DNA from: an uncultured Methanomicrobiales archaeon
GTDB lineage: Archaea > Halobacteriota > Methanomicrobia > Methanomicrobiales > Methanospirillaceae
Assembly: GCA_903832665.1 (NCBI GenBank)
Contig: CAILCG010000016.1
Coordinates: 124,001 to 188,000, forward strand
Reading direction: 5' to 3'
DNA length: 64,000 bases
Part shown: one piece after another, positions 1,439-29,667 of the stretch
How positions within the stretch are numbered: position 1 is the first letter of the stretch
Layout of the letters: each line of letters starts with the position of its first letter
The notes under the pieces: generated by a model
The model's input: only the letters and a program-made list of their open reading frames with translations
Database searches by the model: none
What the model was told of the DNA's origin: nothing
Position numbers and translations under genes: made by a program

Positions 1439-1446
1439 ATTAACCT

Positions 1447-2571
1447 ATGGGCGCAGGAGATTATTACGACACACTCGGCATACCCCGGAATGCCGATGAG
1501 AAAGAAGTAAAGAAAGCATACCGCAACCTCGCCCGTAAATATCACCCGGATGTCTGCAAAGAACCGGGAGCAGAAGATAAGTTCAAGAAGATCAACGAAG
1601 CCTACAGCGTACTTTCTGACGAGCAGAAGAAAAGCCAGTACGACAATATGGGCCACGAAACGTTCACGAACGCTTCGAAGGGCTCGTACACCGGAGGTGG
1701 GCAGAGTGGCGGAGGCTTCTCTTCCGACTTCTCCGGCTTCGGGGATATTTTTGATTTTTTCGGTGGAGGGCAGCGGCGATCAGGACCTCAGCCGGGTGCA
1801 GATCTTCTCATGCGCATCCAGATCGGGCTGGAGGATGCCGTTTCGGGTATCGATCGCGAGATCGAAGTGATGCACACTGAACCCTGTGCAGCCTGCAGCG
1901 GTTCGGGAAGCGAGAACAAACGCCTCAACGTATGCCCCCGATGCGGGGGAACCGGGCAGATGCGACAGACGGCCAACTCTGCGTTTGGCCAGTTTGTCCG
2001 CATGACTCCCTGCACCCAGTGTGGGGGGAAAGGAAAGATCCCCGAGAAAATGTGCAAAGACTGCCGGGGCTCGGGACATACCCGAGTAAAGAGAAAAATT
2101 TCCATCCACATCCCGGCCGGGATTGATAATGGCATGCGGCTCCGGATGGAGGGGTACGGGGAGGCCGGAGATTACGGTGCAGCCAATGGTGACCTGTTCA
2201 TAGAAGTTTATGTCCAGACGCATGACCGGTTCGTACGAACAGGCGATAATCTTGAGACTACCATTGAGATAAGTCCCGCACAGGCGGCCCTGGGAACCTC
2301 CATGGAGATTGAGACAATCGACAAACGTCATATCGATCTCAAGGTGCCGGCAGGAATTCAGTATAATACCGCACTGAAGATCGGCGGCGAAGGAGTGAAA
2401 CGCCGCGATCATCCCGGTGATCTGCTCGTGCGGATAAAGATCGTTACGCCAAAATCCCTGAGTAACGAACAAAAAGAGCTCTACCAGAAACTTGCCGATC
2501 TCGAAGGCAGTTCAACTGCTGGCGGCGGTTTTTTCTCGGGTATCATGGGAAAGAAAAAAGGGAAAAAGTAA
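1447..2571 (+). CDS. dnaJ: Chaperone DnaJ (Hsp40, type I)
   Basis: This is the co-chaperone that stimulates the DnaK ATPase and hands it substrates. The 374 residues show the full type I layout. The J domain covers about residues 5-70 with the HPD signature at residues 33-35. It is followed by a Gly/Phe-rich linker around residues 75-115. The zinc-finger domain has four CxxCxGxG-type motifs ([32 protein letters not shown]), and two C-terminal beta domains follow. The C-terminus ends in a Lys-rich stretch. It lies 8 bp downstream of dnaK and is surely co-transcribed with it. The upstream ribosome-binding site is weak, which fits translational coupling. Length and motif order are normal and nothing is missing. 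Confidence 0.97.
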
Positions 2572-2574
2572 ATT

Positions 2575-2592
2575 CCCGGATTTTTTTTTTTG
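2575..2592 (+). terminator. T-tract terminator after dnaKJ
   Basis: An uninterrupted run of eleven T residues (2581-2591) follows the dnaJ stop codon within 20 bases. Oligo-T tracts without a strong stem are typical archaeal terminators. The next gene has its own spacer of about 60 bases. Confidence 0.6.
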
Positions 2593-2650
2593 AAATCATC
2601 ACCCGCTTTTTGCGCACCTATTTTTAATCACCGCATGCAATGAGATATCG

Positions 2651-3619
2651 ATGAAGCTGCTCTTTGAGATCTCAGGTGAGAACCCGACCCTGCCATTTGC
2701 TGAACTTGCCTGTGTCGGTACCATTCTTGAAGAGCGACTGCAGGTAGCGGTTGCTGAGTGTCCTCACCCGGACCAGGCAAAGCGGCTTGCCATGACACAG
2801 GTCGTACTCGAGTACCTGGGGGAATGCAAACCCACCATCCCTTCATTCCGGGACCTGCTCAAAGACCTGGCAATCACTTCTTCCGGCACATTCGCCGGCA
2901 GGGCCAAAAAGATCCACCCCGGGAGTAATGAACATAATCCCTCTTCGCAACGGGAGTTTGAACGGTTGATCGGCGATATGATCTCCGGCCCGGTCTCGCT
3001 GGACAACCCCGAAACTGAGTATCGAGCCATACTCTCTGAGGACCGATGTTATTTCGGAAAAGTACTCTACTCGATCGATCGTTCCGGGTATGATGCGAGA
3101 AATCCGGGGAAACGGGACTTCTTTCACCCGGGGGTAATGATGCCGCGAATGGCCCGGACGCTGGCAAATATTGCCGGAGTGCAGTCCGGGGATTCGGTTC
3201 TCGATCCCTTCTGCGGAACCGGTGGCATCCTTATCGAGGCAGAGTTGTTGGGAGCGCTTGCTATTGGCAGCGATTTCGATCCCCTGATGGTGCAGGGAAG
3301 CCGGCAGAATATAGGTCAGGCATCCCTGATGCGTGCGGACGCCACCCGGTTACCCTTACGGGATCATTCGATCGACTCGGTTGTCACCGACCTGCCGTAT
3401 GGCCAGTCGGTCTGTATCAAAAAAGCAGACACCATGGATAACCTCTATGCCGACGCCCTGGATGAGATCAACCGCGTATTAAAACGAGGGCGGCGGGCAG
3501 TTGTGGTGACGCACAAGGATATTTCCGCCATCGCCCGCCAGCACATGACGGTGTACCAGCAGCACGAACAGCGCGTGCACAAGAGTCTTACCCGTCGCGT
3601 CCTGGTTCTCGGCCACTGA
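2651..3619 (+). CDS. tRNA (guanine(10)-N2)-dimethyltransferase, Trm-G10 type
   Basis: This SAM-dependent enzyme methylates G10 of tRNA in archaea. The 322-residue protein has an N-terminal THUMP-like region (about residues 1-140). A Rossmann methyltransferase domain follows, with the SAM-binding motif VLDPFCGTGGILIEA (about residues 185-200), an acidic residue on the next strand (GSDFD) and the catalytic DLPYGQS motif, a variant of the (D/N)PPY motif of N-methyltransferases. The phrase HPGVMMPRMARTLANIA ahead of the SAM motif is also typical of this family. The ATG at 2651 places the THUMP start correctly. The gene stands alone between the dnaKJ terminator and a TPR gene. Annotation as Trm-G10 is well supported by motif order; a related RNA guanine methyltransferase is the alternative. 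Confidence 0.88.
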   Translation: MKLLFEISGENPTLPFAELACVGTILEERLQVAVAECPHPDQAKRLAMTQVVLEYLGECKPTIPSFRDLLKDLAITSSGTFAGRAKKIHPGSNEHNPSSQREFERLIGDMISGPVSLDNPETEYRAILSEDRCYFGKVLYSIDRSGYDARNPGKRDFFHPGVMMPRMARTLANIAGVQSGDSVLDPFCGTGGILIEAELLGALAIGSDFDPLMVQGSRQNIGQASLMRADATRLPLRDHSIDSVVTDLPYGQSVCIKKADTMDNLYADALDEINRVLKRGRRAVVVTHKDISAIARQHMTVYQQHEQRVHKSLTRRVLVLGH

Positions 3620-3678: not shown

Positions 3679-4326
3679 ATGTCCACCAAAAAAATACTGT
3701 GCATGGGATTTTTCATTCTCCTTCTCCTCATACTTTGCACCCTGCCGGTCCTGGCATATTCCCAGGAAGCGACGGATAAATACGCCCAAGGAAATGCCCT
3801 GATGAAAAATAAAAATTATACCCAGGCAATCGAGGCGTATGAAGATGCGATCTCCCTGGCCCCGGATTATTTTGAAGCCTGGAATGGTAAGGCAGATGCC
3901 CTGAACCGGGTCCAGCGCTTTACCGAAGCACTTGCTGCATCGAATACGACACTGGCATTGAACCCCGACTATGTGCAGGGATGGATCAACCGGGGCTATA
4001 TCCTCTATAATCTTGGACAGACGGATAATGAACTCAAAGCCTATGACAAAGCCATCTCCATCGATCCCTCCAGCCCCGCTGCCTGGTTCAACCGGGGCTA
4101 TTCGCTTGCCGGCATGAAACGCTATGACGAAGCCCTCGCGGCATTTGATACCGTGAAGTCACTCGATCCCAACTATCCCAATCTTGCTGCAAACCGGCAT
4201 ATCGCAGAACAGAGTCGCGATGCGGCTACACCCTGGTATGTCAAAAATGCTCTCACGTTAGGAATCATCGCATTTTTTGCGATCGGTGCCATTGCGTGGT
4301 TCATTTCCGTGAGGAAAGAACACTAA
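3679..4326 (+). CDS. Small membrane-anchored TPR protein
   Basis: The 215-residue protein has an N-terminal signal or anchor segment (hydrophobic core residues about 9-25, ending near the sequence LAYSQ). Four consecutive 34-residue TPR units follow (about residues 32-167, each with the usual W/Y-G-A pattern and DP at the unit end), and a C-terminal hydrophobic helix (about residues 190-209) ends with RKEH. The topology suggests that the TPR array lies outside the membrane, tethered at the C-terminus. TPR arrays are protein-binding scaffolds; the partner is unknown. The gene is convergent with the giant TPR gene at 5101-19782, and its units are of the same general class, but the giant protein lacks signal and membrane segments. 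Function beyond scaffold is not assigned. Confidence 0.85.
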   Translation: MSTKKILCMGFFILLLLILCTLPVLAYSQEATDKYAQGNALMKNKNYTQAIEAYEDAISLAPDYFEAWNGKADALNRVQRFTEALAASNTTLALNPDYVQGWINRGYILYNLGQTDNELKAYDKAISIDPSSPAAWFNRGYSLAGMKRYDEALAAFDTVKSLDPNYPNLAANRHIAEQSRDAATPWYVKNALTLGIIAFFAIGAIAWFISVRKEH

Positions 4327-5100: not shown

Positions 5101-8100
5101 TTACCGGGATTTGTCATAACAGATCTTGGCTTCATCATGCTTGCCGATCGTATCCAGAATCCCACCGATATCCATCCAGACTTCTTTCCGGGTTGGATCA
5201 AGCTCCAGGGCATGCTTGAATGCGGTCAGGGCATCCTGGTATTTTTCCAGCTCTTTTAACGAGCGTCCCTGGTGAATCCATGCATCCACAAATTCCGGCT
5301 GGAGGGTGATCATATCGCTGTATGCCCCGACTGCCTCTTCATAGAGGCCGAGTGCATCAAGCGCACTGCCCTTGGTAAAGTGGGCAATGGAAAATGTCGG
5401 ATCGATGCTGATCGCCCGATCATACGAGATCAGGGCGGCTTTGTCTTTATTCTGACCTGCCAGGGACATCCCGTGACGGGTCCAGCCGACCACGTTCTCG
5501 GGATCGATGGCCAGACCCTGTTCATAGGAAGATTGTGCTTCCTTGAACTTCCCCAGGTCGTAAAAGGCATTTCCTTTGCCAATCCACGCTTCTGCCAGGG
5601 TCCCGTCCTGTTCGAGCGCCCGGTCATAGGCATCAATGGCATCGCGGGTCATGCCCAGTTCCGCCAAGGCTACTGCCTTGTGAACAAAGGTAGAGGCAGC
5701 ATGGTCGATCTCCAGGGCACGATCGTACGACTGGATGGCATCCCGGTACTGTTCGAGGCCCGCGTAGGCAATCCCCCGGTAGGCAAATGTCTCGGCAGAA
5801 CGGGGTTTATTCTCAAGTGCATGATTGTACGCAGTGATCGCTGCGTCAAGGTTACCGAGCTCTGCATAGGTCCTTCCCATCCAGAAGAACGCGGGAGAGC
5901 AGGTCGGGGTGATCTCTATCGTGTGCTCGAATGCGGCAAGCGCTCCTTCAAAATTACCCAGGGAGAAATATGCTCTTCCCTTTTCGTACAGGGCATCGGC
6001 AGATCCGGGATTTATTGCCAGTAATCGATCGAATGCCGCGATCGCACCCTTGAGATTATCGTTCTGGATCAGGGCAAGGCCTTTTTCATAGAGCGCCTCT
6101 TCAGAATCGGGCGTTATGGAAAGTGCTGCATCAAAGGCGGCAATCGCGTCATCGTACCGCTGGATCCGGGCAAGCGCAATACCCTTCTGCTGGTATGCCT
6201 CGCAGTACCGGGCATTGAGTTCAAGCGCCTTATCCAGTAATGCGATCGCATCCTCGTAGCGCTTCTGGAGAACCAGGGCTACTCCCTTCTGGTAGAATGC
6301 CTCCGTATAATCCGGCCGGTTTTCCAGGGCCAGGTCAAAAGCCTCGACCGCTTCAGTGAACCTCTTTAGCTGGATCAGGGCAATTCCCCGGTAGAGATAG
6401 GGGACCGCATAGGAGGATTCGATCGCAACTGCACGATCATAGCAGTCGAGTGCAGCATCGTAGCTGCCCAGGTGGGTCTCCGCGATGCCTCGATAGAGCC
6501 AGGAATCGGCAAACGTCCCATTTTGTGCAAGCGCCTTGTCAAAAGCAGTGATGGCTTCATGGTACATGGCGAGACCGGACAAGGCCTGCCCTTTCTGGAA
6601 GAATGCCTCAGAGCAGCGGGGACGGTACGAGAGGGCTGCATCCAGGTTCCGTATTGCTTCCTGGTACCTCCCCAGCCGGACATTCGAGACACCAAGGTGG
6701 TAATGAGCCTGTGCATCTTTTCCATCGATTCCCAGCGCTTTGTTATAACAATTGATCGCCTCGGGATCTTTTGACAACGCAGAGAGAGCAATGCCCTTGC
6801 CGGTCCAGATCATGCCTGCGGTCGGCCGAATCCGGAGCGCCGGATCGAATGCCCCGATTGCATCCTCGTACCGTCCCAGCCATATGAATGTCCGGCCCTT
6901 CTGGTACAGGGCATCGATATTTTTCGGTTCAATTAAAAGAGCATTTTCAAATGATACTGCCGCTTCCCGGTACATCCCCAGCTGGAAGAGCGAACGCCCC
7001 TTGTCAAAAAATGCCTGGGTGTAATCGGGACGAATCTGAAGTGCCCGAGCAAATGCTTCAATCGCATCTTCGTAGCCACCGAGCGCGAAGAGTGCACTGC
7101 CTTTCAGGTACCATGCCTCTGCATTGGAGGGATCGATCTCCAGTGTCTTGACGTACGCTTCAATGGCATCGTTGTACCGGTGGAGCTCTACCAGGGATCT
7201 CCCCCGGTGAAGCCATCCGTCAAGAGAACGCGGGCTGATGAGCAGCATCCTGTCAAAAGCTTCAATGGCATCAGCCTGGCGTCCGGTTGCCGCAAGGGAT
7301 AATCCCTTGTTGTAGTGGGCAAGGGGATTTCCTGCATCCAGGTCAATGTCCCGGTTGAAGGCAATTATTGCCTCTTCGTGCCGTCCCAGGTGTGCCAGTG
7401 CAAGGCCTTTTTCATAATGAACTGCAGCATAATTTTTCTCAAGGGTCAACGCTTTATCGAAGGTCTTGACGGCCTCCCGGTACATTCCAAGCGATGAGAG
7501 GGAGAGTCCCTTGTCATAGAACGCTTCGACAAACCCGGGATCTATCTCGAGTGCCAGGTCATGCTCCTTTGCGGCTTCTTCAAACCTGCCAAGGCGATAG
7601 AGGGCCTTTCCTTTGAAGTGATGGGACAGCGCGTGGGCAGGATCGAGCGAAAGGGCCTTGTTGTATACCGCGATCGCTTCCTTTGTCCGGTCAAGGAGAT
7701 CCAGGGAACGGGCTTTCTGGTACACTGCGGAAAAATTATCCGGCTGGATTCCCAGGCACCGATCGAATGCCACCAGTGCTTCGCTGTGCCGGGTGATCTT
7801 TGCAAGGATCAGCCCCAGTTCCAGCCATGCTTCAGCGTTTTCAGGGGTGAGGGTGAGCAGCTGCTCATAGGATTCTGCAGACCGGGTATAGTCACCTGCC
7901 TCAGCCAGGGCTGCGGATCGATAATAGAGCGCTGCGGTATCTCCGGGAGCAGAGACAAGCGATCCATCCAGGGCCCTGACTGCTTCTGCAAACTTTTTGA
8001 GGGTGAAGAGGGCGAGACCCTTTTCGTATAATGCACATGCATCCCAGGGTCTGAGTTCGAGAACCCTATCAAATGCCGGTATCGCATCTTCCATCCTGCC

Positions 8101-11100
8101 GAGAAGGGCATAGGCCCGGCCCTGTTCAAGGAAGGCCCGGGACGATTCCGGATTATAGGTAGCGGCTTGTGCAAACGCTTCTATCGCTTCTTCATAGTGC
8201 CCGAGCTGCAGGAGAACTGAACCCTTCTCTACCCATATAGCGGGGTTTTCAGAATCCAGGCGAAGTGCAGCATCAAAAGCAACTCCCGCATCTGCAATCC
8301 TCCCAAGAAGTACCAGCGATAACCCCATTTCATATGAGGGTTCAGACTGCCGGGGGAGATGTGCAGCAGCAGAGGCGAGAACTTCTGCGGCCTCAGTATG
8401 CCTGTCGAGGCGGGTCAGCGAGCGGCCTTTTTCAAAGAGAATTTCCCCATTTTCCGGCTCTCGCCCCAGGGCAATATCCAGGATGTGGATGGCATCTTCA
8501 TATTTCTCCAGTCTGCCCAGGGATCTTCCCTCCAAAAAGAGGAGGGGAATATTGAAGGGGTCGCCTGCACGAGCCCGTTCAAACGCTTCAACGGCCTCGG
8601 CGTACATATCCAGGCGTTCATATGCGATACCGGTATGATACCAGGAAACGGCATGTTCCGGTTCGTACGAGAGCATCCCGGCCAGAGTGGTAATCTCTTC
8701 ATCATACCGCCCGAGCTCCTCGAGAGCAAGCCCTTTGGCCAGGTATGCCCGGGTGAAACCGGGATCACAGGCGATCGTGCGGTCGAAGGAGAGTATGGCA
8801 TCCTCATGCCGGCCCAGTGCTTCATACGCACGACCCAGGGCAAAGTGCCCGTCCCGCTGGCTGTCATCGAGACTGAGTGCCTGCAGGAAGGCTGCAACGG
8901 CGTCATCGTAACGTGATAGCCGGAAGAATGCGCAGCCTTTCTCGAAGTGGGGATCATAGGTCTGCGGATTGAATCCGATCGCCTTTTCGAATGCATCTGC
9001 TGCTTTTTCATACTGCCGGGTCTCTGCCAGGGCACTACCCTTGCCATTCCAGACCTCGTAGTTGCCGCCATCAAGTTTGATTGCGGCATCGAACGCCACA
9101 ACGGCCTCCTTGAATTTTTTCAGCCGGGACAGTGCGAAGCCCTTGTGATAAAACGCCGGGGCATAGCTTGCATTCACCTTGAGACATTTATCAAAAGCGG
9201 TAACGGCTTCTTTGTACTGTGACAGGCGGAGATTTGCAAGACCGGTATCAAAAAACGCGGTATCAAAATGCGGATCAATTCCCGTTGCGCGTTCGAATGC
9301 GGTGATGGCATCGGTATCCCGGTTCAACTGGGTCAGGGCTACTCCTTTGTCATAACAGGCATTGGCATACTTCGGGTTAATGGCAAGGGCATGATCATAC
9401 GATGAGACTGCGTCATCAAATCTTCCCAGTTCAAAGAGGGCAATCCCCCGGTCATACCACCCGTTTGCCGAAGCGGGCCTGAGATCAAGGGCGCGCGTCA
9501 GGGCCTCAACTGCCGGCTCAAACTCCCCGGTCGAGAGATGTGCGCTCCCTTTCCTGAACCAGGCCTGGGCGCAGGCAGGATCTGCGGTAAGTACCTGTTC
9601 GAAACACTCAATTGCATCCCGGGTCTTTTCCAGTCCGAGATATGCTTTCCCTTTCCGGTACCATGCGGTACTGTTCCCGGGTTCCAGTGCAAGGGACCGG
9701 TCAAAGGCTTCCAGGGACTCGGCATACCGCTCGCATTCATACAACGTGCTTCCTTTCAGGATCCAGACGTCGGCGCGGTTATTCTCCCTATCCAGTGCGG
9801 ATTCGATCGGGACCAGAGCTTCGGTAAACCGCTGGAGTTTTGTAAGGGCGAGGGCACGCTGGTACATCACCGTTGCATCTTCAGGGGTCAATTCCAGCAT
9901 CTTATCAAAAACCTGGAGGGCAATTTCATATTTGCCAAGCTGCATATAGGCCAGGCCGGACTGGTAGATCGCGTCATGAATCGAAGAATCGTGGGTAAGG
10001 GCGATCTTGAATTCCTTTATCGCCTTTTCATATTTTCCAGTCGCATTTAAGGCAAGTCCTTTCTGGTAATGTGCTCCTGCATGCTCGGGAAGATACTGGA
10101 GAGTATAATCGAAGGATTTTATCGCTTCGGGATAATTCCTGAGGCAGGCAAGGGCAAGACCTCTTCCATAGGCCGCATCGGCAAACGTGGAATCGAAGGA
10201 TAGCGTGAGATCGAAGGCTGCAACAGCATCTTCATTTAGTCCCTGCGCAAAAAGCGCCTGACCTTTACCGAATGCGGCGTGAGCATCTTTTGGACTCATT
10301 TCCAGGGTCCGGTTAAACGCCTCGACAGCTCCGGTGAAGTCCCCCAGTAAAACCTGCACCTGTCCTTTCTCGAACCAGGTAGCTGCATCTTCCGGTGAGA
10401 ATTCTATCGAGCGGTTCAGGGAATCCAAAGCATCCTGGTACCGGCTGCACATGAGAAGTGAGTGTGCCCGGTTGAACTGTATTCGGGCATCATCCTGACC
10501 AAGGGTAATTGCGTGATCGAAAGCCACAACCGCATCCCCATGGCGTTCAAGGGTCGCCAGGGCGAGTCCTTTCTGATAGGCGGCATCAGCGAGACAGGGA
10601 TTGAATTCAAGGGTGAGATCGAATGCCGGAATCGCCTCTTCAAACCGCTGAAGATTTATTAACGCGAGCGCCCGTTGATACATGACGATGGGATCGGCAG
10701 GAGTAAGGTCCAACATCCGATCAAAATATCGAAGGGCATTTTCAGGATCCCCCAGTTGTACACAGGCTAAACCAGACCGATAGATTGCATCATGGATTGA
10801 AGGGTCGAGATCCAATGCGGCCTTGAATTCCTTTATTGATTTCTTGAATTTTCCCTGTGCGAAAAGCGAAAGTCCTTTCTGGTAGTGCGCTCCGGCATGC
10901 GCAGGAAGATAGTCGATCGTATAATCAAATGATTTTATCGCTTCTGAATAGTTTTCCTGGCGGACAAGGGTTAGGCCTTTTCCATAGGCTGCATCAATGA
11001 AGGTCGAATCAAGGGACAATGCAAGATCAAAGGCAACAATGGCGTCATCGTCCCGTTTCAGTGCCGCTAATGCCTGGCCCTTTCCAAATGCTGCATGGGC

Positions 11101-14100
11101 ATCCTTTGGATCCAGTTCAAGGGTCCGGGTAAAGGCGTCAACAACACCGGGGTAATCTTCCAGCAATGCCAGAACCTGTCCTTTTTCAAACCAGGTAGCT
11201 GCGTCTTCCGGTCCAAGTTCTATCGAACGGTTCAGGGAATCCAGTGCATCGGGGTATCGGCCACAGACCAGGAGTGCATGGGCCCGACTGAAAAAGATCG
11301 CAGCGTCATTCCGACCAAGAGTTATTGCCTGATCAAAAACAACAACCGCTTCTTCGTATCGTTCGAGAGTCGCAAACACGAGTCCTTTCTGGAAGGCGGC
11401 AGCCGCGTGGCTGGGATCGGACTCAAGGACGAGATCGAATGCAAGAAGCGCTTCTTCGAACCTGTGAAGACAGGTTAATGCAAGCGCCCTTTGGTACAGG
11501 ACGACTGCATCTCCGGGAGTGAATTCCAGCATCTGATCAAAAGACCGAAGAGCATTTTCGAACCGTTCAAGGAGCGCATATGCCAGACCGGACTGGTAGA
11601 TTGCGTCGTGAATAGAAGAATCGCGAGAAAGTGCTGTTTTGAATTCCCGTATTGCCGGCTCATATTTTGCAAGAGCATTCAGCGCGAGTCCTTTCCGGTA
11701 GTGTGCTCCGGCGTTGTCGGGATCGTACTCGAGCGCATAGTCTAACGATTTGATCGCTTCAGAATAATTTCCCCCCCTGGCAAGGGCAAGTCCTTTTCCA
11801 AAGGCCGCATCTGCGAATGCCGAATCCAGAGATAGCGCGAGATCGAACGCAGCAATGGCTTCATCATCCCGTCCCAGTGCAGACAGTGCCTGACCTTTTC
11901 CAAAAGCTGCATGGGCATCTTTCGGACTCAGTTCGAGGGTCTTTTCAAATGCTTTGACGGCACCGCTAAAGTCTCCCAGCAATGACAGTACCTGTCCTTT
12001 ATCATACCAGGTGATCGCATCCTCCGGGGCAAGTTCAATTGAACGGTTCAGGGATCCCAAAGCATCGCTGTACCGCCCGGCTACCAGGAGGGCATGTCCG
12101 CGACTGAAGGTAATACCGGCCGTCTCCTCCCCAAGCGTAAGAGCCATGTCGAACGATGCAATCGCCTCATCATTCCGGCCAAGGATGAAAAGGGCCACTC
12201 CTTTGTTGTATGCAGCGCTCTGGTGCTGCGGGTTGAGTTCCAGGGTACGCTCGTAGGCAGAAAGAGCTTCTTCGAATCGTTCGATCTTCTGCAGCGTCTC
12301 TGCTTTTTCGAACCAGGCAACCGTACAGGAACTGTCGTTTGCGAGGGCATTATCAAACGCGTGCAATGCATCATCATACAGTGCCATCCGGGCATATCCC
12401 TGGCCTTTGTAGTACCAGGCCGCGGTATTCTGCCCGTCAATTGCCAGTACTTTTTCAAAGAGGGTGATGGCATCTTCCCAGCGCCGGAGGTGCATGTATG
12501 CCTTTGCCCGGAAGAACAGGGTCTTTACATCCTGGGGCCTCTGTTTTAAGGATTTGCCCAGTGCCTCTACCGATTCCTTGTACCGGTCCAGGCGATACAA
12601 GGCATATCCCTTGCATGTAAGGATATCCGGGTTTGCCTTGTCAGAATCCAGTGCATGATCGAACGATATAACCGCATCCTCGTACTTTTTGAGATTAACG
12701 AGTGCCTCGCCGCGCCCGCGGTGTGACTGCCCGTTCTCGGGATCGAGAAGAAGGGCTGCATCGAATGACTCAATGGCATCTTCATACCGCCCTATATGGG
12801 CAAGGGCCAGACCTTTTGCCAGGAAAGACGGGGCATCCTGGCGGTCCTGGGAAAGGGCCCGGTCGAACGAGAGGATCGCTTCAGGGTAATTCTCCAGTTC
12901 AAAGAGTACAAATCCTTTTTCCGCATGAACCCGGGACGTGTCGAGCCCGAGGGAAATACACTGGTTGAAGACCTCAAGAGCAGGTGCAGCCTGTTTCATC
13001 CGGGTCAGGGCCAGTCCTTTTTCATACAGAATGTCTACCGTGCCCGGACTGACTGCCAGGAACGCGTCGAAGGTTTCTATGGCGGATTCATACATTTTAA
13101 GGGTGAATAATGCCCTTCCCTTGCCACTCAGGGCATCGGTATTTACCGGATTGAGCCCCAGCGCATGATCGAACGAACCGATTGCGTCGTCAAAAAGTTG
13201 CAGCCTTACCTGTGCCATCCCGCTATAGAGAAATGCCCGTTCACAGGAAGTGTCGAGATGGGTGACCCGGTGGTAAGCCGGAATCGCTTTGTCATAGAGT
13301 TCCTGTTTGTCAAATGCCCGGGCCTGCCCGTAGAGTGCGGTCACTTCTTGTGGTGCCACAGCAATTACCCGGCCGAATGCGTCGGCGGCTTCGGGATACC
13401 GGGCCAGGACAAACAGCGCACGTCCTTTCTGGAGGTAGGCCGGTTCGAAATCGGGGATGGTGTTGTTTGCCTGTTCAAAAGCAGCCACCGCATCAGAAAA
13501 ATTACCGGTCCTGAACAATGCAATACCCTTATAATAGAACGCTTCTCCAAAAGCGGGTTGGCTGGCGAGCGCCCGGTCAAAGGAACCTGCTGCTTCTGAC
13601 GGAGAGTCCAGGCTGAGCTGGGCACGCCCCTTGTAAAACCATGAGTGGGCACTTTCCGGATCGATCTCGAGTGCACTATTATAGGAGAGGATTGCCTCCT
13701 GGTATCGTTCTTCTGCGGCAAGACAAAATCCTTTGATCAACCACGCATTGGCGATCTTCGGACTGGTCTCGAGGGTACGCGAGAGTGCTTCTATTGCCTC
13801 GGTAAATCTTCCCAGTTCTGCAAGGGAGAGACCCTTGTGATAGAGTGCGTCGGTATATCCCGGGTCCAGTTCAAGAGCCAGAGCAAATGACGACACCGCA
13901 TCATCGTGCTGGACCTGCAGGGCCTGCGTGAGACCTTTCTGGTATACGATATCTGCTCTCTTTGGTTCCAGCGTCTGGGCCGCTTCGAACACAATGATCG
14001 CCTCGGCATAATTCTCCAGACGGATAAAGGCCAGTCCTTTCTGGTAGAATGCATCGGCATTGTCCGGGGTGATCTCGAGCGTGATATTGAAAGAGAGCAC

Positions 14101-17100
14101 TGCCTCTTCGTACATCCCGATTGAACCAAGGGCTATTCCCTTGCGATAGAATGCAGGAGCATACCCGGGAATCAGTTCCAGAACCTGATCAAAGGATTCA
14201 ATGGCCTTTGCAGGATCGTCCAGGTGGATAAGCGCAAGACCACGGTCAAAATATGCCTGGGCATTGGTATGGTCCAGTTCGATAGTCCGGCTGAACGCAC
14301 TGACTGCCTTGTCGTACTGTTCGAGATCCAGCAGGGCGACACCTTTCCGGTACCATGCCCCGGAAAATTCCGGATTGATCTCGATAGCCCGTTCGGCGGC
14401 GGACAGGGAATCTTCATTGCGCCCCAGGTCATGGAGGGCAAGGGCTTTGTAAAACGCTGCATCAGCGGACCGGGGATCGAGTTCCAGGGTGCGATCGAAA
14501 GAATCGAGGGCATCCCGGTACAGGCCAAGGGTGTACAGGGACAGTCCTTTCTGGTAAGCGGCAGCGATATCCGTGGGCTGCAGGGAAAGGGCCCGGTCAA
14601 ATGCCGTGATTGCATCTTTATGCAGCCCGGTTTTTGCGAGCGCGTACCCCCGGTTATAATGCGCCGGTTCGAGACTGGGCTCGATCTCGAGGGCCAGGTC
14701 AAACGAAGCGACCGCTTCGTCAAACCGGGATAGTTTCAGCAGCACGAGCCCTTTCTGGAAATGGGCCTCGCAAAATGCCGGGTTCAGCTCCAGTGCCCGG
14801 TCGTAGGCTTCATTGGCTTCAGGATAATTTTCCAGATCAGACAGTGCCCGCCCTTTATGATAATATGCCGGGGAACTATTGGGCGATTCATGGATCGTCC
14901 GGTCGAAATCCTTGATCGATTCCCGCAGTTTGCCGAGCTGGTACAGGGCCAGTCCCTTGTTCAGTCGTGCGTCAGTGAATTTTGGTTTGATATGAAGGGT
15001 CTTGTCAAAAGAAAAGACCGCCTCGCTGAACATCTCCAGGTCTGCATACGAGAGTCCCTTGTGGTAAAATGCGAGGGCATTTTCCGGATCATAGATCAGA
15101 GCCTTGTCAAAAGCTTCGAGGGCTTCTTTGTTCTGTCCGAGTTTCTGGAGGGCAAGGCCCCGGTTAAAGTGACCCTGGGCATTACTGGTATCATTCTCGA
15201 GATTGCGATCAAAAGATTCGATCGCTTCGGCATACCTGCCCAGTTTGAGGTACGAATATCCCTGGTAATAATTGGCTTCGGTATACGAAGATTCCATCCC
15301 GAGTGCCCGGGTAAATGCGTCAACCGCTTCTTGGTACCGGCCGATCTCTGTTAACGATCGGCCTTTGTTATACCAGGCAGGGGCAGAGGGCCCGAGAGCA
15401 ATGGTCTTTTCAAACGCAACAATGGCATCCTGGTGATCCCCGAGTTTTGCAAGGGCAAGTCCCTTGTGATACTGGGCATCGCTGTTGGCAGGATCGATCT
15501 CCAGCAGCACTTCAAAAACATGGATCGACTCCTCGACCCGGTTGATCTTTTCAAGAGAGAGTCCCTTGTAGTGGAACGCGTCAATGCATCGCTGGTTCAG
15601 GGCAATGGCATTATCAAAGGCATCGATGGCATCCTGGTATCTTCCCAGGTCATAATAGGCCCTGCCGCTCTTTACCCATCCGTCCACGTGCCCGGGATCG
15701 ATCTTTACCGCTTTGGTATAGGCGGCAATGGCATCCTGGGTCTTGCCCAGTTCATTCAATGCATCGCCTTTCCGGACCCAGATGTCCCGCAGGGATGGAT
15801 TCAGGTCAAGTCCGCGGGTGTAGGCAACGATCGCGTCCTGGGTCTTTCCCATATCGTACAGGACATTTCCTTTCTTCACCCAGCCATCCGAAAGGTTCGG
15901 ATCGATCTCAAGGACCTTGGAGAATGCAACCAGGGCTTCGGGTTTTTTGCCGAGGCTGACATTTGCATTTCCTTTCAGCATCCAGATATCAACAAGGGTT
16001 GGGTTTAAAGAAAGAATACGATCTGCGGTTTCTATGGCATCGGTATAGCGTTTGAGCTGGACCAAGGAGCCGGCCCGGTAGATGAGCGCTTCAATGAGCG
16101 AGGGATTTGTCGCAAGACTCCGGTCCAGGCACACGACTGCCTCTTCATGGCGGGAGAGGTGGGCCAGTGCAATGCCCTGGTACATGTAGCCGTCAGAAAG
16201 GGACGGATCCATCCGGGTTGCGGTAACGAGGGCTTCGAGGGCCTTTCCGTACTGCTTGGACTGGAGGTAGGCAATACCCAGGTAGTGATAGGACTGGGGA
16301 TTTGCAGAATCCCGGTCAATGGCCTGCTCGAACGTGCTTACCGCTTCGGCGTAGCGTTCAGACTGGATGAGCGCGATTCCCCGGAAATGATAGGCCGGGG
16401 CATTGGCCGGATCGATCGCGAGTGCCTGGTCGAAAGCCCGTATAGCCTCTTCATAGCGTTCCCGCCCGGCAAGAGATATGCCCAGGTAATAGTAAGCCGG
16501 GCCATTTTCGGGTTGCAGGGCAGTTGCCCGTTCGAACGCCCTGATCGCCTCATCGTAGCGTTCACGCTGGGCAAGTGCAAGTCCCTTGTGATAGAGGGTC
16601 TTTGGATCATCCGGCGAGAGTTCAAGCGCCTGGTCATAGGAGAGCACCGCTTCGAGGTGTTTGCCCATCCGGGCGAGGGCGGCCCCGCGCTCGTACCATG
16701 CCGGGGCACACTGGCGGTTGATCTCCAGCACGCGATCAAAAGCCTTCACTGCCTCTTCTGCCTTCTCCTGTGCAGAAAGTGCAAGCCCGGAATAATACCA
16801 GGCCTGGACATTTCCGGCATCATCCTCAAGCGCCAGGTTGAGTACGGTAACGGCATCGGAAAACCGGGAGAGATTGACCAGGGCAATTCCTTTTTTTACC
16901 GCTGCTTCCGTGAGCTGGGGATTGAGGGCAATCGCCCTCTCGAACGCTTCTACGGATTTTTCTTCAAGGCCCAGGTGCGAAAGGGTTGTCCCTTTTTTGA
17001 GCCAGGCATCCACGAGGGCGGGATTCTGTTCAAGAGCTTGATTGAAGGCAACATTTGCATCTTCGAACCGCTTGAGATGCATGAGGGCATTGCCTTTCTC

Positions 17101-19782
17101 ATATGCCGCATCCGCGTGCTGGGGAGACAGGGAAAGGACCCGGTCAAATGCCGCCACTGCATCGTCAAAGCGGTTCAGCTTCACCAGGGATTTTCCGCGG
17201 TAATACTGGGCATTGACGGAGGTAGGATCACTATCAATGACCCGGTCAAAAGCCAGGACAGCCTCGTTATATGAGCCGATACAAAAAAGAGCCTGGGCTT
17301 TTTCATACAGGGCATCGATATTCTGCGGGTCGAGGGCAATGACGAGATTGAATGTTGTTACGGCTTCGTCGTATTGCCCGGTATTTACCAGCACATGTGC
17401 CTTCCGGGAAAGGATCTCGGCATTATCAGGATCGAACTCAAGAGCCTGGTTATACGAACCAATCGCTTCCTGCAACCGGTTTGAAAGGTTCAGGGCGTTC
17501 CCCCGCTCGAAATAGGCATGGGAGAAGCGGTTGTTGATCTCCAGCGCTTTATCGAATGCACGGATCGATTCGTCAAAACGGTTCAGGGAGAGCAACGCGA
17601 TACCCTTGTGGAACCATGCCCAGACATCCCGCGGGTTATCCTCGAGGGACCGGTTGAAGAGGACAATGGCTTCACCAAACCGGTCAAGGTTCACCAGGGC
17701 AATTCCCTTGCGGACCGATGCTTCGGTATGTTTTGGATTTAAGACCAGAACCTTGTCAAATGCCGTGATTGCGTCATCCTGCCTGCCAAGGGTGGCGAGA
17801 GTGATACCCTTGTGGAACCAGGCATTGATGAGCGAAGGATTCTGTTCAAGGGCTTCGTCAAACGCCAGGAGGGCCTCGTTGAGCTGTTCAAGGTGCACAA
17901 AAGCCATTGCTTTTTCATACAATGCCCCGGCATTCTGCGGAGATAACGCAAGGACACAGTCAAATGCATCGATGGCATCATCGTACCGCTCCAGGTTCAT
18001 GAGCATGATGCCCCGCTGATAGAGCGTCAGCGTGTGGGAAGGATCGATCTCGGCTGCCCGGTCAAAGGCATCGAAGGCATCGCTGTACCTGCCAAGGCTC
18101 GCGAGCGCCAATCCCCGGTTGTAATATGCATTGACATAATTCGGATTGATCCTGATCGCATCTTCAAAAGCCCCGATCGCCTCTTTTGCCAGGTCCAGTT
18201 TTGCAAAGGCAAGACCCAAGTCATAGAAGGCCTGGGCATAGGAGGGTTTTATCTCAATACTTCGCTGGAACGCATCGATTGCCTCTTCATACCTTCCGAG
18301 TTTTGCGAGCAGGAGACCTTTCTGGTGATATGCCTGGGGGTTTTCCGGTTCCGTTGCGAGCGTCCGGTCAAACTCGAGGACTGCTTCGGTGTTTCGCCCC
18401 AGCTTTGCAAGAGCAAATCCCTTGTGATACAGTGCATCCGCGTGGGAGGGTCGGATCCGGAGGGCAATATCATACGCAGTTATGGCCTCGGCAAACCGGC
18501 CGAGATGCGCATACGACAACCCCTTCTGGTAGGCGGCTGCAGCGCAGGAAGGATCCAGGGTCAGCGCATCCTCAAATGATTCGAGGGCTTCCTTGTACCG
18601 GCCCAGGCGGGTGAGTGCCACGCCGCGGTAATAGAAGGATGCAGCATGATCTTCTCTTTTGTCCAGGGCATGGTTGAAGGCATCCAGTGCTTCATCGTAC
18701 CGGTTCAGGTTGATGCAGGAGACTCCCTTGAGGTAAAAGGCATCGGCATTCGACTGGTCAAACGAGAGGGTCCGATCGAAATCCTGGGCTGCTTCATCAT
18801 AATCATTCAGGAATGCATAGGCAATACCCCGGTTGTAATACGTCTGGGCATGGGCAGGATTCAGTTCCTCAGCCTTGTCAAAAGCACTGATCGCTTCAGT
18901 GTAGTGCTGGAGCTGGTTGTGGGCAAGTCCCAGGTGATACCAGGCATCTGCCTGCTGGGGGTTGAGGGAGAGCGCCTGCTTCAGGGCAGAAACCGCTGCA
19001 TCATATTTCCCGGTCTTTAAGAGAGATATTCCGTTTATGGTCCAGATATCTGCATGATCGGGCTCGGATTGGAGAAATTTTGCTGCAGACTGTGCTGCTT
19101 CTTCGTAGCGTTCCTGTTTTGCTAAGATGAAACACCGGTAATACCAGACCCAGACATCGGCAGGGTCAAGCTCGTTGGCCTTCTCAAAAGCGGCCAGCGC
19201 TTCGTCATATTTTCCTATCTCGTAGAGGGATATCCCGCGGTTATAGAATGCCCGGGCATAGGTGGGAACGATCTCAATGGCCTTGTCATATGCAATGATC
19301 GCTTCGTGATGCCTGCCAATATCCCCGAGCGCGATGCCTTTATTGTAGAAAACTTTTGCATGTTTCGGGTCGAGGGTGAGCGCATGATCATAGGCGCTGA
19401 TCGCTTCCTTGAACCGTCCCAGCTCATATAATGCAATGCCTTTTAAGATCCAAGCTTCGGCATTGTCAAACCGTATCGAGAGCAGTTGTTCGCAGGCATC
19501 GAGGGCTTCTTCATTCCTACCAATCTGGGCCAGGGTAGCGGCTTTGTTATACCAGGAATTCGGGTCGCCGGGCTCTATCGAGAGGGCCAGATCATACGAT
19601 GCGATGGCCTCTTCAAATTTCCCCAAGTCGTACAGGGCAATCCCTTTGAAATAATGAGCTTTTGCAAGTTTGGGGAAGAGCGCAAGACCACGGTCGAACA
19701 TGACGATGGCTTCCTGGTACCTGCCAAGGTCATAGAGTTCGATGCCCTGGCGCAACAATGCTTCAGCATCACTCTTATTCAT
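5101..19782 (-). CDS. Giant TPR-repeat protein, 4893 residues
   Basis: A single open frame of 14.7 kb encodes a protein built almost entirely of 34-residue TPR units: 4893/34 gives about 143 repeats from residue 5 to the C-terminus. Each unit keeps the Y/F-x-K-G-x-A-L, A-I-x-A-F/Y-D-x-A-L and x-P pattern (for example YNKGIALGDIGRHHEAIIAY). There is no signal peptide, membrane segment or enzymatic domain, so it should be cytoplasmic. TPR arrays form right-handed superhelical scaffolds with about seven to eight units per turn, so this would be a solenoid of roughly 18 turns. Blocks of eight TPRs are duplicated inside it (see repeat entries). The ATG at 19782 has GAGGT ten bases upstream, and a TATA-like box lies further up. 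The gene is monocistronic, ends in TAA and is convergent with another TPR gene. Partner proteins and function are unknown. Confidence 0.95.
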   Translation of the reverse strand: MNKSDAEALLRQGIELYDLGRYQEAIVMFDRGLALFPKLAKAHYFKGIALYDLGKFEEAIASYDLALSIEPGDPNSWYNKAATLAQIGRNEEALDACEQLLSIRFDNAEAWILKGIALYELGRFKEAISAYDHALTLDPKHAKVFYNKGIALGDIGRHHEAIIAYDKAIEIVPTYARAFYNRGISLYEIGKYDEALAAFEKANELDPADVWVWYYRCFILAKQERYEEAAQSAAKFLQSEPDHADIWTINGISLLKTGKYDAAVSALKQALSLNPQQADAWYHLGLAHNQLQHYTEAISAFDKAEELNPAHAQTYYNRGIAYAFLNDYDEAAQDFDRTLSFDQSNADAFYLKGVSCINLNRYDEALDAFNHALDKREDHAASFYYRGVALTRLGRYKEALESFEDALTLDPSCAAAAYQKGLSYAHLGRFAEAITAYDIALRIRPSHADALYHKGFALAKLGRNTEAVLEFDRTLATEPENPQAYHQKGLLLAKLGRYEEAIDAFQRSIEIKPSYAQAFYDLGLAFAKLDLAKEAIGAFEDAIRINPNYVNAYYNRGLALASLGRYSDAFDAFDRAAEIDPSHTLTLYQRGIMLMNLERYDDAIDAFDCVLALSPQNAGALYEKAMAFVHLEQLNEALLAFDEALEQNPSLINAWFHKGITLATLGRQDDAITAFDKVLVLNPKHTEASVRKGIALVNLDRFGEAIVLFNRSLEDNPRDVWAWFHKGIALLSLNRFDESIRAFDKALEINNRFSHAYFERGNALNLSNRLQEAIGSYNQALEFDPDNAEILSRKAHVLVNTGQYDEAVTTFNLVIALDPQNIDALYEKAQALFCIGSYNEAVLAFDRVIDSDPTSVNAQYYRGKSLVKLNRFDDAVAAFDRVLSLSPQHADAAYEKGNALMHLKRFEDANVAFNQALEQNPALVDAWLKKGTTLSHLGLEEKSVEAFERAIALNPQLTEAAVKKGIALVNLSRFSDAVTVLNLALEDDAGNVQAWYYSGLALSAQEKAEEAVKAFDRVLEINRQCAPAWYERGAALARMGKHLEAVLSYDQALELSPDDPKTLYHKGLALAQRERYDEAIRAFERATALQPENGPAYYYLGISLAGRERYEEAIRAFDQALAIDPANAPAYHFRGIALIQSERYAEAVSTFEQAIDRDSANPQSYHYLGIAYLQSKQYGKALEALVTATRMDPSLSDGYMYQGIALAHLSRHEEAVVCLDRSLATNPSLIEALIYRAGSLVQLKRYTDAIETADRILSLNPTLVDIWMLKGNANVSLGKKPEALVAFSKVLEIDPNLSDGWVKKGNVLYDMGKTQDAIVAYTRGLDLNPSLRDIWVRKGDALNELGKTQDAIAAYTKAVKIDPGHVDGWVKSGRAYYDLGRYQDAIDAFDNAIALNQRCIDAFHYKGLSLEKINRVEESIHVFEVLLEIDPANSDAQYHKGLALAKLGDHQDAIVAFEKTIALGPSAPAWYNKGRSLTEIGRYQEAVDAFTRALGMESSYTEANYYQGYSYLKLGRYAEAIESFDRNLENDTSNAQGHFNRGLALQKLGQNKEALEAFDKALIYDPENALAFYHKGLSYADLEMFSEAVFSFDKTLHIKPKFTDARLNKGLALYQLGKLRESIKDFDRTIHESPNSSPAYYHKGRALSDLENYPEANEAYDRALELNPAFCEAHFQKGLVLLKLSRFDEAVASFDLALEIEPSLEPAHYNRGYALAKTGLHKDAITAFDRALSLQPTDIAAAYQKGLSLYTLGLYRDALDSFDRTLELDPRSADAAFYKALALHDLGRNEDSLSAAERAIEINPEFSGAWYRKGVALLDLEQYDKAVSAFSRTIELDHTNAQAYFDRGLALIHLDDPAKAIESFDQVLELIPGYAPAFYRKGIALGSIGMYEEAVLSFNITLEITPDNADAFYQKGLAFIRLENYAEAIIVFEAAQTLEPKRADIVYQKGLTQALQVQHDDAVSSFALALELDPGYTDALYHKGLSLAELGRFTEAIEALSRTLETSPKIANAWLIKGFCLAAEERYQEAILSYNSALEIDPESAHSWFYKGRAQLSLDSPSEAAGSFDRALASQPAFGEAFYYKGIALFRTGNFSDAVAAFEQANNTIPDFEPAYLQKGRALFVLARYPEAADAFGRVIAVAPQEVTALYGQARAFDKQELYDKAIPAYHRVTHLDTSCERAFLYSGMAQVRLQLFDDAIGSFDHALGLNPVNTDALSGKGRALFTLKMYESAIETFDAFLAVSPGTVDILYEKGLALTRMKQAAPALEVFNQCISLGLDTSRVHAEKGFVLFELENYPEAILSFDRALSQDRQDAPSFLAKGLALAHIGRYEDAIESFDAALLLDPENGQSHRGRGEALVNLKKYEDAVISFDHALDSDKANPDILTCKGYALYRLDRYKESVEALGKSLKQRPQDVKTLFFRAKAYMHLRRWEDAITLFEKVLAIDGQNTAAWYYKGQGYARMALYDDALHAFDNALANDSSCTVAWFEKAETLQKIERFEEALSAYERTLELNPQHQSAAYNKGVALFILGRNDEAIASFDMALTLGEETAGITFSRGHALLVAGRYSDALGSLNRSIELAPEDAITWYDKGQVLSLLGDFSGAVKAFEKTLELSPKDAHAAFGKGQALSALGRDDEAIAAFDLALSLDSAFADAAFGKGLALARGGNYSEAIKSLDYALEYDPDNAGAHYRKGLALNALAKYEPAIREFKTALSRDSSIHDAIYQSGLAYALLERFENALRSFDQMLEFTPGDAVVLYQRALALTCLHRFEEALLAFDLVLESDPSHAAAAFQKGLVFATLERYEEAVVVFDQAITLGRNDAAIFFSRAHALLVCGRYPDALDSLNRSIELGPEDAATWFEKGQVLALLEDYPGVVDAFTRTLELDPKDAHAAFGKGQALAALKRDDDAIVAFDLALSLDSTFIDAAYGKGLTLVRQENYSEAIKSFDYTIDYLPAHAGAHYQKGLSLFAQGKFKKSIKEFKAALDLDPSIHDAIYRSGLACVQLGDPENALRYFDRMLDLTPADPIVMYQRALALINLQRFEEAIPAFDLTLEFNPCLADAAYQKGLALATLERHGDAVVAFDHAITLGQDDARIQFNRAHSLLMCSRYQDALDSLNRSIEFSPEDAATWFEKGQVQVLLGDFTGAVEAFNRTLEMSPKDAHAAFGKGQALFAQGLNEDAVAAFDLTLSFDSTFADAAYGRGLALACLRNYPEAIKSFDYTLQYLPEHAGAHYQKGLALNATGKYEKAIKEFKIALTHDSSIHDAIYQSGLAYMQLGKYEIALQVFDKMLELTPEDATVMYQRALALTKLQRFTEALVPIESALDRENNRADVWILKGSTLYECERYAESLEAFDRSLALEPGNSTAWYRKGKAYLGLEKTRDAIECFEQVLTADPACAQAWFRKGSAHLSTGEFEPAVEALTRALDLRPASANGWYDRGIALFELGRFDDAVSSYDHALAINPKYANACYDKGVALTQLNRDTDAITAFERATGIDPHFDTAFFDTGLANLRLSQYKEAVTAFDKCLKVNASYAPAFYHKGFALSRLKKFKEAVVAFDAAIKLDGGNYEVWNGKGSALAETRQYEKAADAFEKAIGFNPQTYDPHFEKGCAFFRLSRYDDAVAAFLQALSLDDSQRDGHFALGRAYEALGRHEDAILSFDRTIACDPGFTRAYLAKGLALEELGRYDEEITTLAGMLSYEPEHAVSWYHTGIAYERLDMYAEAVEAFERARAGDPFNIPLLFLEGRSLGRLEKYEDAIHILDIALGREPENGEILFEKGRSLTRLDRHTEAAEVLASAAAHLPRQSEPSYEMGLSLVLLGRIADAGVAFDAALRLDSENPAIWVEKGSVLLQLGHYEEAIEAFAQAATYNPESSRAFLEQGRAYALLGRMEDAIPAFDRVLELRPWDACALYEKGLALFTLKKFAEAVRALDGSLVSAPGDTAALYYRSAALAEAGDYTRSAESYEQLLTLTPENAEAWLELGLILAKITRHSEALVAFDRCLGIQPDNFSAVYQKARSLDLLDRTKEAIAVYNKALSLDPAHALSHHFKGKALYRLGRFEEAAKEHDLALEIDPGFVEAFYDKGLSLSSLGMYREAVKTFDKALTLEKNYAAVHYEKGLALAHLGRHEEAIIAFNRDIDLDAGNPLAHYNKGLSLAATGRQADAIEAFDRMLLISPRSLDGWLHRGRSLVELHRYNDAIEAYVKTLEIDPSNAEAWYLKGSALFALGGYEDAIEAFARALQIRPDYTQAFFDKGRSLFQLGMYREAAVSFENALLIEPKNIDALYQKGRTFIWLGRYEDAIGAFDPALRIRPTAGMIWTGKGIALSALSKDPEAINCYNKALGIDGKDAQAHYHLGVSNVRLGRYQEAIRNLDAALSYRPRCSEAFFQKGQALSGLAMYHEAITAFDKALAQNGTFADSWLYRGIAETHLGSYDAALDCYDRAVAIESSYAVPYLYRGIALIQLKRFTEAVEAFDLALENRPDYTEAFYQKGVALVLQKRYEDAIALLDKALELNARYCEAYQQKGIALARIQRYDDAIAAFDAALSITPDSEEALYEKGLALIQNDNLKGAIAAFDRLLAINPGSADALYEKGRAYFSLGNFEGALAAFEHTIEITPTCSPAFFWMGRTYAELGNLDAAITAYNHALENKPRSAETFAYRGIAYAGLEQYRDAIQSYDRALEIDHAASTFVHKAVALAELGMTRDAIDAYDRALEQDGTLAEAWIGKGNAFYDLGKFKEAQSSYEQGLAIDPENVVGWTRHGMSLAGQNKDKAALISYDRAISIDPTFSIAHFTKGSALDALGLYEEAVGAYSDMITLQPEFVDAWIHQGRSLKELEKYQDALTAFKHALELDPTRKEVWMDIGGILDTIGKHDEAKICYDKSR
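9772..12219 (-). repeat. Tandem 816-bp (eight-TPR) super-repeat inside the giant TPR gene
   Basis: Three successive units start at 12015, 11199 and 10383 (reading down), exactly 816 bp apart. Each encodes the same ordered series of eight TPRs, beginning (I/A)TW(Y/F)(D/E)KGQV and passing through KDAHAAFGKGQAL, GAHY(R/Q)KGL and SSIHDAIY(Q/R)SGLA to SLNRSIE(L/F). The third unit keeps the pattern for six TPRs and then diverges. Two TPRs before the first unit match the unit's last two. Shared idiosyncratic phrases, not just TPR consensus, show duplication of a block as a whole. Confidence 0.9.
16603..18030 (-). repeat. Older 816-bp (eight-TPR) duplication inside the giant TPR gene
   Basis: TPRs encoded around 17826-18030 and 17826-17419 (phrases YEKAMAFVHL, ALEQNPSLINAW, RKGIALVNLDRF, DKALEIN) recur exactly 816 bp lower as YEKGNALMHL, ALEQNPALVDAW, KKGIALVNLSRF and DRVLEIN. 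About six units match. The divergence is much larger than in the 9.8-12.2 kb array, so the same eight-TPR block size was used in an older event. Confidence 0.75.
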
Positions 19783-29368: not shown

Positions 29369-29667
29369 GAATGGGAGAGTATTTCTCCTTCGTCGCTGGG
29401 CCCTTTGACATATCACTATGGGACGCCGGAGGAGATGGGTCTGGCTGAATAAATTTTCAGAGTCCGAATTGGAAGATAATGAGGGAATTTGAGGAAAATC
29501 CGGGGTTCCCTGCCAGCCGGATGATTTCGCAAAAATGGGAATATAGTAGCCGGTTTACTCCCACTCTTGGGCAGTGCTCTCATTTTTTGAAAACAGTCAG
29601 TTATTGCCCCACGTTCCTTGTATCGATCACACGCTTCTATAAGAAACCCTGATCCCCCGGTGTTTTT

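What the first reader, a model, noticed from the sequence alone, without database searches (positions are those of the whole stretch)
5101..19782. A 4893-residue protein made almost only of TPR units
The frame is open for 14.7 kb and codes for about 143 successive 34-residue TPRs with no other domain, signal or membrane segment. TPR proteins usually have 3 to 16 repeats; I know of no TPR protein of this size that lacks any other domain. If TPR superhelix geometry holds (about seven to eight repeats and about 6 nm per turn), the molecule would be a solenoid of roughly 18 turns and about 0.1 micrometre long, long enough to act as a ruler, scaffold or cytoskeletal-like element. Length estimates are inference from known TPR structures.
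Basis: partly seen in the sequence, partly recalled or inferred. Interest (0 to 1): 0.85.

Follow-up and report, generated by a model that had tools for sequence, protein, structure and literature searches.

The report
Giant TPR coil growing by turns
A methane-producing archaeal genus carries a single giant coil-shaped protein built from about 112 to 159 similar small blocks, and evolution has lengthened or shortened it almost only by eight blocks at a time, which is one full turn of the coil, as if its faces must stay aligned to work.

Summary
The frame 5101-19782 (minus strand) encodes 4893 residues: 5 lead residues, 143 complete TPRs (141 of 34 and 2 of 33 residues) and a 28-residue terminal TPR. 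No other domain or membrane segment was found. It is no assembly artefact: orthologues of 3806-5404 aa occupy a conserved locus across the genus (records titled Methanoregula) and its sister genus, including closed genomes, with dN/dS 0.07-0.10.

Orthologues differ in length almost only by multiples of exactly 8 TPRs (272 residues): 112, 120, 128, 136 or 144 units in 20 of 24 complete proteins. Parsimony gives 16 length changes at four sites, 12-13 of them multiples of 8 (others 15, 7, 7, 1). Eight TPRs are one superhelical turn of the consensus TPR solenoid, and AlphaFold models of two regions superpose on that turn at 1.5 Å over 272 residues. Other giant TPR arrays duplicate at lags 1-4 instead. 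Groove-lining positions are more conserved than outer ones. I infer a cytoplasmic, phase-locked scaffold or ruler of 14-20 turns. Ligand and function are undemonstrated.

The parts
5101..19782 (-). Giant TPR protein gene, 4893 aa: 143 complete TPRs plus a 28-aa terminal TPR
16708..18033 (-). Length hotspot 1 (TPR units 18-30): an 8-TPR duplication in the window protein (units 18-22 match 26-30, lag 8, about 50% identity); relatives have 8 units fewer or 7 more
12427..13446 (-). Length hotspot 2 (units 63-72): the sister genus has 8 more TPRs here
9877..12324 (-). Length hotspot 3 core (units 74-97): an 8-TPR (272-aa) block present three times, about 60-73% identical; the interval between anchor units 72 and 100 is 4, 12, 20, 28 or 36 units among orthologues (exceptions 11 and 5)
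   Evidence: AlphaFold model of units 74-90
7837..9162 (-). Length hotspot 4 (units 105-117): some relatives have exactly 8 units more or fewer
18034..19782 (-). Conserved N-terminal part, units 1-17, collinear in the orthologues (59-87% identity in the alignment); modelled with mean pLDDT 96.1
5104..5187 (-). C-terminal 28-residue partial TPR, same length in every complete orthologue
3679..4326 (+). Convergent neighbour: small TPR protein (215 aa) with an N-terminal signal-like hydrophobic stretch and a C-terminal hydrophobic stretch; conserved next to the giant gene in many relatives
122..3619 (+). Neighbouring DnaK (partial at window edge), DnaJ and UPF0020-type methyltransferase genes, convergent with the giant gene in most relatives

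Best explanation
The gene makes one continuous cytoplasmic TPR superhelix with about eight repeats per turn: 18 turns in the window species, about 14 to 20 turns in relatives. It works as a phase-locked scaffold or ruler: partners bind along the inner groove and at the two conserved ends, and the rotational orientation of these sites has to be kept. Indels that are not whole turns would twist everything beyond them out of register, so selection removes them, while gain or loss of complete turns only changes length. SHOWN: continuous TPR array, orthology, purifying selection, indel sizes of mostly 8n TPRs, predicted geometry matching a solved eight-repeat turn, groove-side conservation. INFERRED: that selection for rotational phase is the cause, cytoplasmic location (no signal or membrane segment), groove binding, and the ruler or scaffold role.
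For: Unit counts (including the terminal partial) are 112, 120, 128, 136 or 144 in 20 of 24 complete orthologues; exceptions 134, 151, 159 (one clade) and 121. Spacing between anchor units is constant except at four sites, with values 9/17/24, 10/18, 4/12/20/28/36 (and 11, 5), and 5/13/21. Most-parsimonious mapping on a tree of core units: 16 events, ten of size 8, one 16, one 24, others 15, 7, 7, 1; the 15 and one 7 can equally be read as 8 plus 7; about 1.6e-8 under a uniform-size null (illustrative). Internal duplications in the family lie at lag 8 in 16 proteins, then 16, 24 and 15, with single proteins at 1 and 7. In one clade, mid-array blocks copied at lag 8 leave the total unchanged, which needs a compensating loss. 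Other giant TPR arrays (196, 114 and 69 TPRs) show mainly short lags, 1-4. The conserved core has no 8-unit sequence periodicity, so the rule is not simply a leftover of one ancient 8-block. Eight consensus TPRs complete a superhelical turn (PMC7885266; 7-8 per turn and pitch about 72 A in PMC4191447). AlphaFold models of units 1-17 and 74-90 (pLDDT 96 and 95) match the 8-repeat CTPR superhelix 8chy over 272 residues at 1.5 A. Helix-A, groove-side positions are more conserved than outer helix-B positions (0.66 against 0.53, in 62 of 82 core units, P about 7e-8) and have lower dN/dS (0.05-0.09 against 0.10-0.13).
Against: No ligand, localisation, expression or phenotype is known. Once a tandem 8-TPR block exists, further 8-unit changes can arise by recombination without selection, which inflates the count at hotspot 3. 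Exceptions of 7 and 1 TPR exist, although 7 is still near one turn. Total counts divisible by 8 may partly reflect an ancestor with 120 units. No 8-unit periodicity was found in conservation, and only a weak one in net charge (lag 8, permutation P 0.006, one of many lags).
Confidence: 0.5

Rival explanations
1. Recombination-driven rule: the gene grows and shrinks by unequal crossing-over between 8-TPR DNA blocks that happen to be similar. The size 8 is a historical accident of the duplicating block and there is no selection for rotational phase.
For: Similar 8-TPR blocks sit in tandem at hotspot 3 and would recombine at that length. Several 8-unit changes reuse that site.
Against: Lag-8 events occur at four separate intervals plus a mid-array site, yet the core shows no shared 8-unit periodicity that would supply the homology. 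Single TPRs also share sequence, and other giant arrays do duplicate at lags 1-4.
Confidence: 0.3
2. Co-chaperone hub: a giant client or partner holder working with the DnaK-DnaJ system encoded next door, many TPR grooves binding chaperone tails or unfolded chains.
For: DnaK-DnaJ-methyltransferase lies beside the gene in most relatives. TPRs are known Hsp70/Hsp90 partners (established knowledge).
Against: Genes are convergent, not an operon. In G010 the DnaK gene is about 40 kb away while the giant gene is intact. DnaK-DnaJ-methyltransferase occurs without a giant TPR gene beside it in other genera.
Confidence: 0.12
3. Elastic spring: the superhelix stores strain or bears force between two attached ends.
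For: Consensus TPR arrays behave as spring-like superhelices in optical tweezers (PMC8944806, abstract); both ends of this protein are conserved.
Against: No anchor domain at either end. Elasticity alone would not require whole-turn indels.
Confidence: 0.06
4. Tolerated passenger: the array expanded neutrally and has no particular function.
For: Repeat proteins expand readily; lengths differ among species.
Against: dN/dS 0.07-0.10 over the whole frame, an orthologue in most genomes of the genus, conserved ends.
Confidence: 0.02

Closest known systems
Consensus-designed TPR superhelices (8- and 16-repeat CTPR; PDB 8chy, 9qhb)
   Same: 34-residue TPRs stacked without interruption; 8 repeats per turn; 272-residue segments of the models superpose at 1.5-1.8 A; best matches by sequence among solved structures
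   Different: Designed, identical repeats, few in number; the natural protein has about 143 diverged repeats with unit-specific conservation
O-GlcNAc transferase / SPINDLY TPR domains (1w3b, 6eou, 7y4i)
   Same: Long natural TPR superhelices with a ligand-binding inner groove
   Different: Far fewer TPRs, fused to a glycosyltransferase domain; none here
Nebulin (vertebrate muscle thin-filament giant)
   Same: Giant protein of short repeats whose length varies in whole super-repeats (22 to 29 super-repeats of seven modules; PMC7109182)
   Different: Not homologous; nebulin super-repeats match the thin-filament period, whereas here the core shows no sequence super-repeat and no partner is known
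Giant pure TPR protein of genome G061 (6710 aa, 196 TPRs), another family of the same order
   Same: Essentially unbroken TPR array of extreme length
   Different: Not an orthologue at this locus; internal duplications at lags 1-4, not 8

Membership tests
Tetratricopeptide repeat (TPR) solenoid | Tandem 34-residue units with the TPR consensus | tested here: met
   143 units in exact register; conserved G/A at 8, A20, F/Y24, A27, P32; Pfam TPR_1 2347 bits. Position 7 is mostly K/R and position 11 mostly L, departures from the textbook consensus
Tetratricopeptide repeat (TPR) solenoid | Each unit a pair of antiparallel helices stacked into a superhelix | tested here: met
   AlphaFold models of units 1-17 and 74-90: 34 helices each, pLDDT 96 and 95; superposition on a CTPR superhelix, 1.5 A over 272 residues. 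Predicted, not solved
CTPR-type superhelix | Eight repeats per superhelical turn | tested here: met
   By superposition of 8-repeat segments on 8chy and 9qhb and literature; tested on 34 of 144 units only
OGT/SPINDLY-type TPR enzymes | C-terminal glycosyltransferase (GT41) domain | tested here: not met
   No non-TPR domain in the Pfam scan; the C terminus is a partial TPR
Hsp70/Hsp90 TPR co-chaperones | Carboxylate-clamp residues and binding of a C-terminal EEVD-type tail | not tested
   Clamp residues were not mapped; DnaK-DnaJ adjacency is common but not constant
Nebulin-like molecular ruler | Length varies by whole super-repeats | tested here: met
   Length changes are mostly multiples of 8 TPRs
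Nebulin-like molecular ruler | Sequence super-repeat along the array | tested here: not met
   No 8-unit periodicity in the conserved core; hence not filed as a member
Nebulin-like molecular ruler | Binds along a filament and sets or stabilises its length | not testable with these tools
   No binding or localisation data

The most novel reading that the evidence does not exclude
An archaeal molecular ruler: a single TPR superhelix of roughly 0.1 micrometre whose length is set in whole turns, about 14 to 20 depending on species, because it has to stay in rotational register with a periodic partner such as a filament, a lattice or a stack of identical complexes in the cytoplasm. It would be a prokaryotic functional counterpart of nebulin.
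Probability: 0.25. Interest if true: 0.92.

Novelty: new variant of a known kind. Interest (0 to 1): 0.75.

Why it matters
A recent review gives TPR proteins 2 to 20 repeats (PMC7279152). Here an archaeal genus keeps five to eight times more, under strong purifying selection, and changes the length in steps that equal one structural turn. If selection for rotational phase is the cause, evolution is reading the superhelical pitch of a solenoid, and an unknown large periodic structure may exist in these methanogen cells. It gives a direct test: 8-TPR deletions should be tolerated and 4-TPR deletions not.

Tried and rejected
Assembly artefact: rejected (independent and closed genomes, no near-identical DNA arrays). 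Absence in G016, G024 and G025 as true loss: not supported, because the neighbouring DnaK/DnaJ/methyltransferase orthologues (and in some HypD) are missing too and a G016 contig ends there, so an assembly or binning gap is likelier. Operon with DnaK-DnaJ: rejected (convergent, separable). Giant gene ancestral to the family at this locus: no TPR gene was detected in the stretches fetched beyond the methyltransferase in other genera (two of ten stretches were short). Ancient 8-TPR sequence periodicity throughout: not found. Periodicity of conservation at 8 units: not found; charge at lag 8 only weak. Direct measurement of the superhelical turn from model coordinates: not possible, coordinates are not exposed. 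An alignment of the hotspot 3 block with G005/G031 was out of register and dropped. Papers: none found that describe this protein, in the open-access library only.

Full report
CHECK. The finding's coordinates are right; the gene lies on the minus strand: ORF 5101-19782, ATG, 4893 aa; the plus-strand reading has many stops. A dynamic-programming decomposition places 141 units of 34 residues and two of 33 (units 43 and 138) end to end after five lead residues and before a 28-residue partial unit, with no interruption. Pfam sees only TPR-class models. Hydropathy gives no membrane segment (maximum 19-residue mean 1.41). Computed mass is 543 kDa and pI 5.0.

NOT AN ARTEFACT. No tandem DNA array is reported in this stretch; units average 31% identity. 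Of the 38 other genomes of the genus that were searched, most carry an orthologue of the first 599 aa (about 60-87% identity), usually in open frames of about 3000-5400 aa, and so does the sister genus g11 at 58-60%. Several of these genomes are single contigs. Public titles call the carriers Methanoregula sp. or Methanomicrobiales; two closed contigs have lengths that I recall as those of M. boonei 6A8 and M. formicica SMSP (recall, not a test). Pairwise dN/dS over the whole frame is 0.07-0.10. Orthologues share the N terminus (MxKSDAEALLRQGIELYDLG or close) and the C-terminal partial TPR.

LOCUS. The order HypD - MscS - aminotransferase - giant TPR, convergent with small TPR - methyltransferase - DnaJ - DnaK, recurs through the genus and the sister genus with some losses. 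In other genera of the family and order DnaK-DnaJ-methyltransferase exists but no TPR gene was detected beside it. In G010 DnaK lies about 40 kb away, so the link to chaperones is not obligatory. Genomes that seem to lack the gene also lack the neighbouring genes, which points to assembly or binning gaps.

WHOLE-TURN RULE. Counting the terminal partial unit, complete orthologues have 112, 120, 128, 136 or 144 TPRs in 20 of 24 cases; G022, G005 and G031 (one clade) have 134, 151 and 159, and G059 has 121. G019 has a frame break near its start and is left out of this count. Aligning proteins unit by unit, the spacing between anchor units is constant except at four places: units 17-34 (9, 17 or 24), 62-72 (10 or 18), 72-100 (4, 12, 20, 28 or 36; also 11 and 5), and 104-117 (5, 13 or 21). 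On a tree of core units most-parsimonious mapping needs 16 changes: ten of size 8, one 16, one 24, and 15, 7, 7, 1. The 15 and one 7 can be read equally as an 8 followed by a 7. If sizes were uniform modulo 8, 12 or more of 16 would have probability about 1.6e-8; events at hotspot 3 are not fully independent, so this is illustrative. Taking one event for each of five sites still gives 3e-5. A second alignment scheme gives 8 as by far the commonest indel size over all pairs, which are not independent (362 against 60 for 16, 51 for 15 and 49 for 7).

SELF-COMPARISON AND CONTROLS. Recent internal duplications in the family lie at lag 8 in 16 proteins, with 16 and 24 as multiples, and 15 and 7 in the exceptional clade; no run at lags 2-6 passes the threshold. 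In the clade G009/G003/G010 blocks at lag 8 occur without a net change, so an 8-unit gain was balanced by a loss. Three other long TPR arrays used as controls (G061, 196 TPRs; G076, 114; G048b, 69) duplicate mainly at lags 1-4. The conserved core has no 8-unit sequence period, so the rule is not the visible trace of one primordial 8-TPR module repeated throughout.

STRUCTURE. Eight consensus TPRs complete a superhelical turn (PMC7885266); another source gives seven to eight and a pitch of about 72 A (PMC4191447). AlphaFold models of units 1-17 (pLDDT 96.1, pTM 0.75) and of units 74-90 in hotspot 3 (pLDDT 95.3, pTM 0.67) each contain a 272-residue stretch that superposes on the crystal structure of an 8-repeat CTPR superhelix, 8chy, with rmsd 1.5 A over all 272 residues, and on 9qhb with 1.7-1.8 A. 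So the evolutionary quantum equals one turn of the geometry the protein is predicted to adopt. At 6-7.2 nm per turn the window protein would be about 108-130 nm long if unstretched (inference).

GROOVE. Positions 2, 6, 9, 12 and 13 of the TPR, on helix A and taken as facing the inner groove (established TPR structure, not measured here), vary between units but are conserved between orthologous units (mean 0.66), more than outer positions 18, 22, 26, 29 and 33 (0.53); 62 of 82 core units, Wilcoxon P about 7e-8. dN/dS is 0.05-0.09 for groove-side and 0.10-0.13 for outer positions. This is what unit-specific binding in the groove would produce.

INTERPRETATION. The best reading is a cytoplasmic scaffold or ruler whose binding sites must keep rotational phase, so that length may change only by complete turns. 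The phase-selection step is inferred. The main rival is recombination between tandem 8-TPR blocks without selection; it explains repeated changes at hotspot 3 but not the same size at separate sites without shared periodicity, nor the different behaviour of other giant TPR arrays. A co-chaperone hub, an elastic spring and a neutral passenger are less likely. The working analogy is nebulin, whose length varies in whole super-repeats of seven modules (PMC7109182); it is not a homologue, and the sequence super-repeat that marks nebulin was tested and not found here.

VERDICT. The protein itself belongs to the TPR solenoid class, so its size alone is a new variant of a known kind. The strong, testable and, as far as I could find, undescribed part is the whole-turn length rule. 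Literature coverage was limited to the open-access library.

Noticed in passing
window 19976-20900, minus strand: The aminotransferase gene upstream of the giant gene is a frameshifted, truncated remnant in this genome; most relatives have an intact copy of about 410 aa and G014 shows none.
   Followed up: partly
window 3679-4326, plus strand: Small TPR protein with a hydrophobic N terminus and a hydrophobic C-terminal stretch, apparently membrane-anchored, convergent with the giant gene and often conserved there.
   Followed up: partly
L057/L058 (genome G061, contig C6, about 153.8-173.9 kb): A pure TPR protein of 6710 aa with 196 TPRs in another family of the order, longer than the one reported, with internal duplications at lags 1-4.
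   Followed up: partly
L042 / L074 (CP121470, Methanoregula sp. SKADARSKE-2): In this closed genome the giant frame is broken about two thirds along while TPR coding continues in other frames: either sequencing errors or early decay.
   Followed up: partly
window 29654-30326: A 258-bp unit repeated 2.6 times head to tail at 88%.
   Followed up: no
genomes G016, G024, G025: Bins lacking the giant gene also lack the neighbouring DnaK, DnaJ and methyltransferase orthologues; long repeat genes may cause such gaps in metagenome bins.
   Followed up: partly
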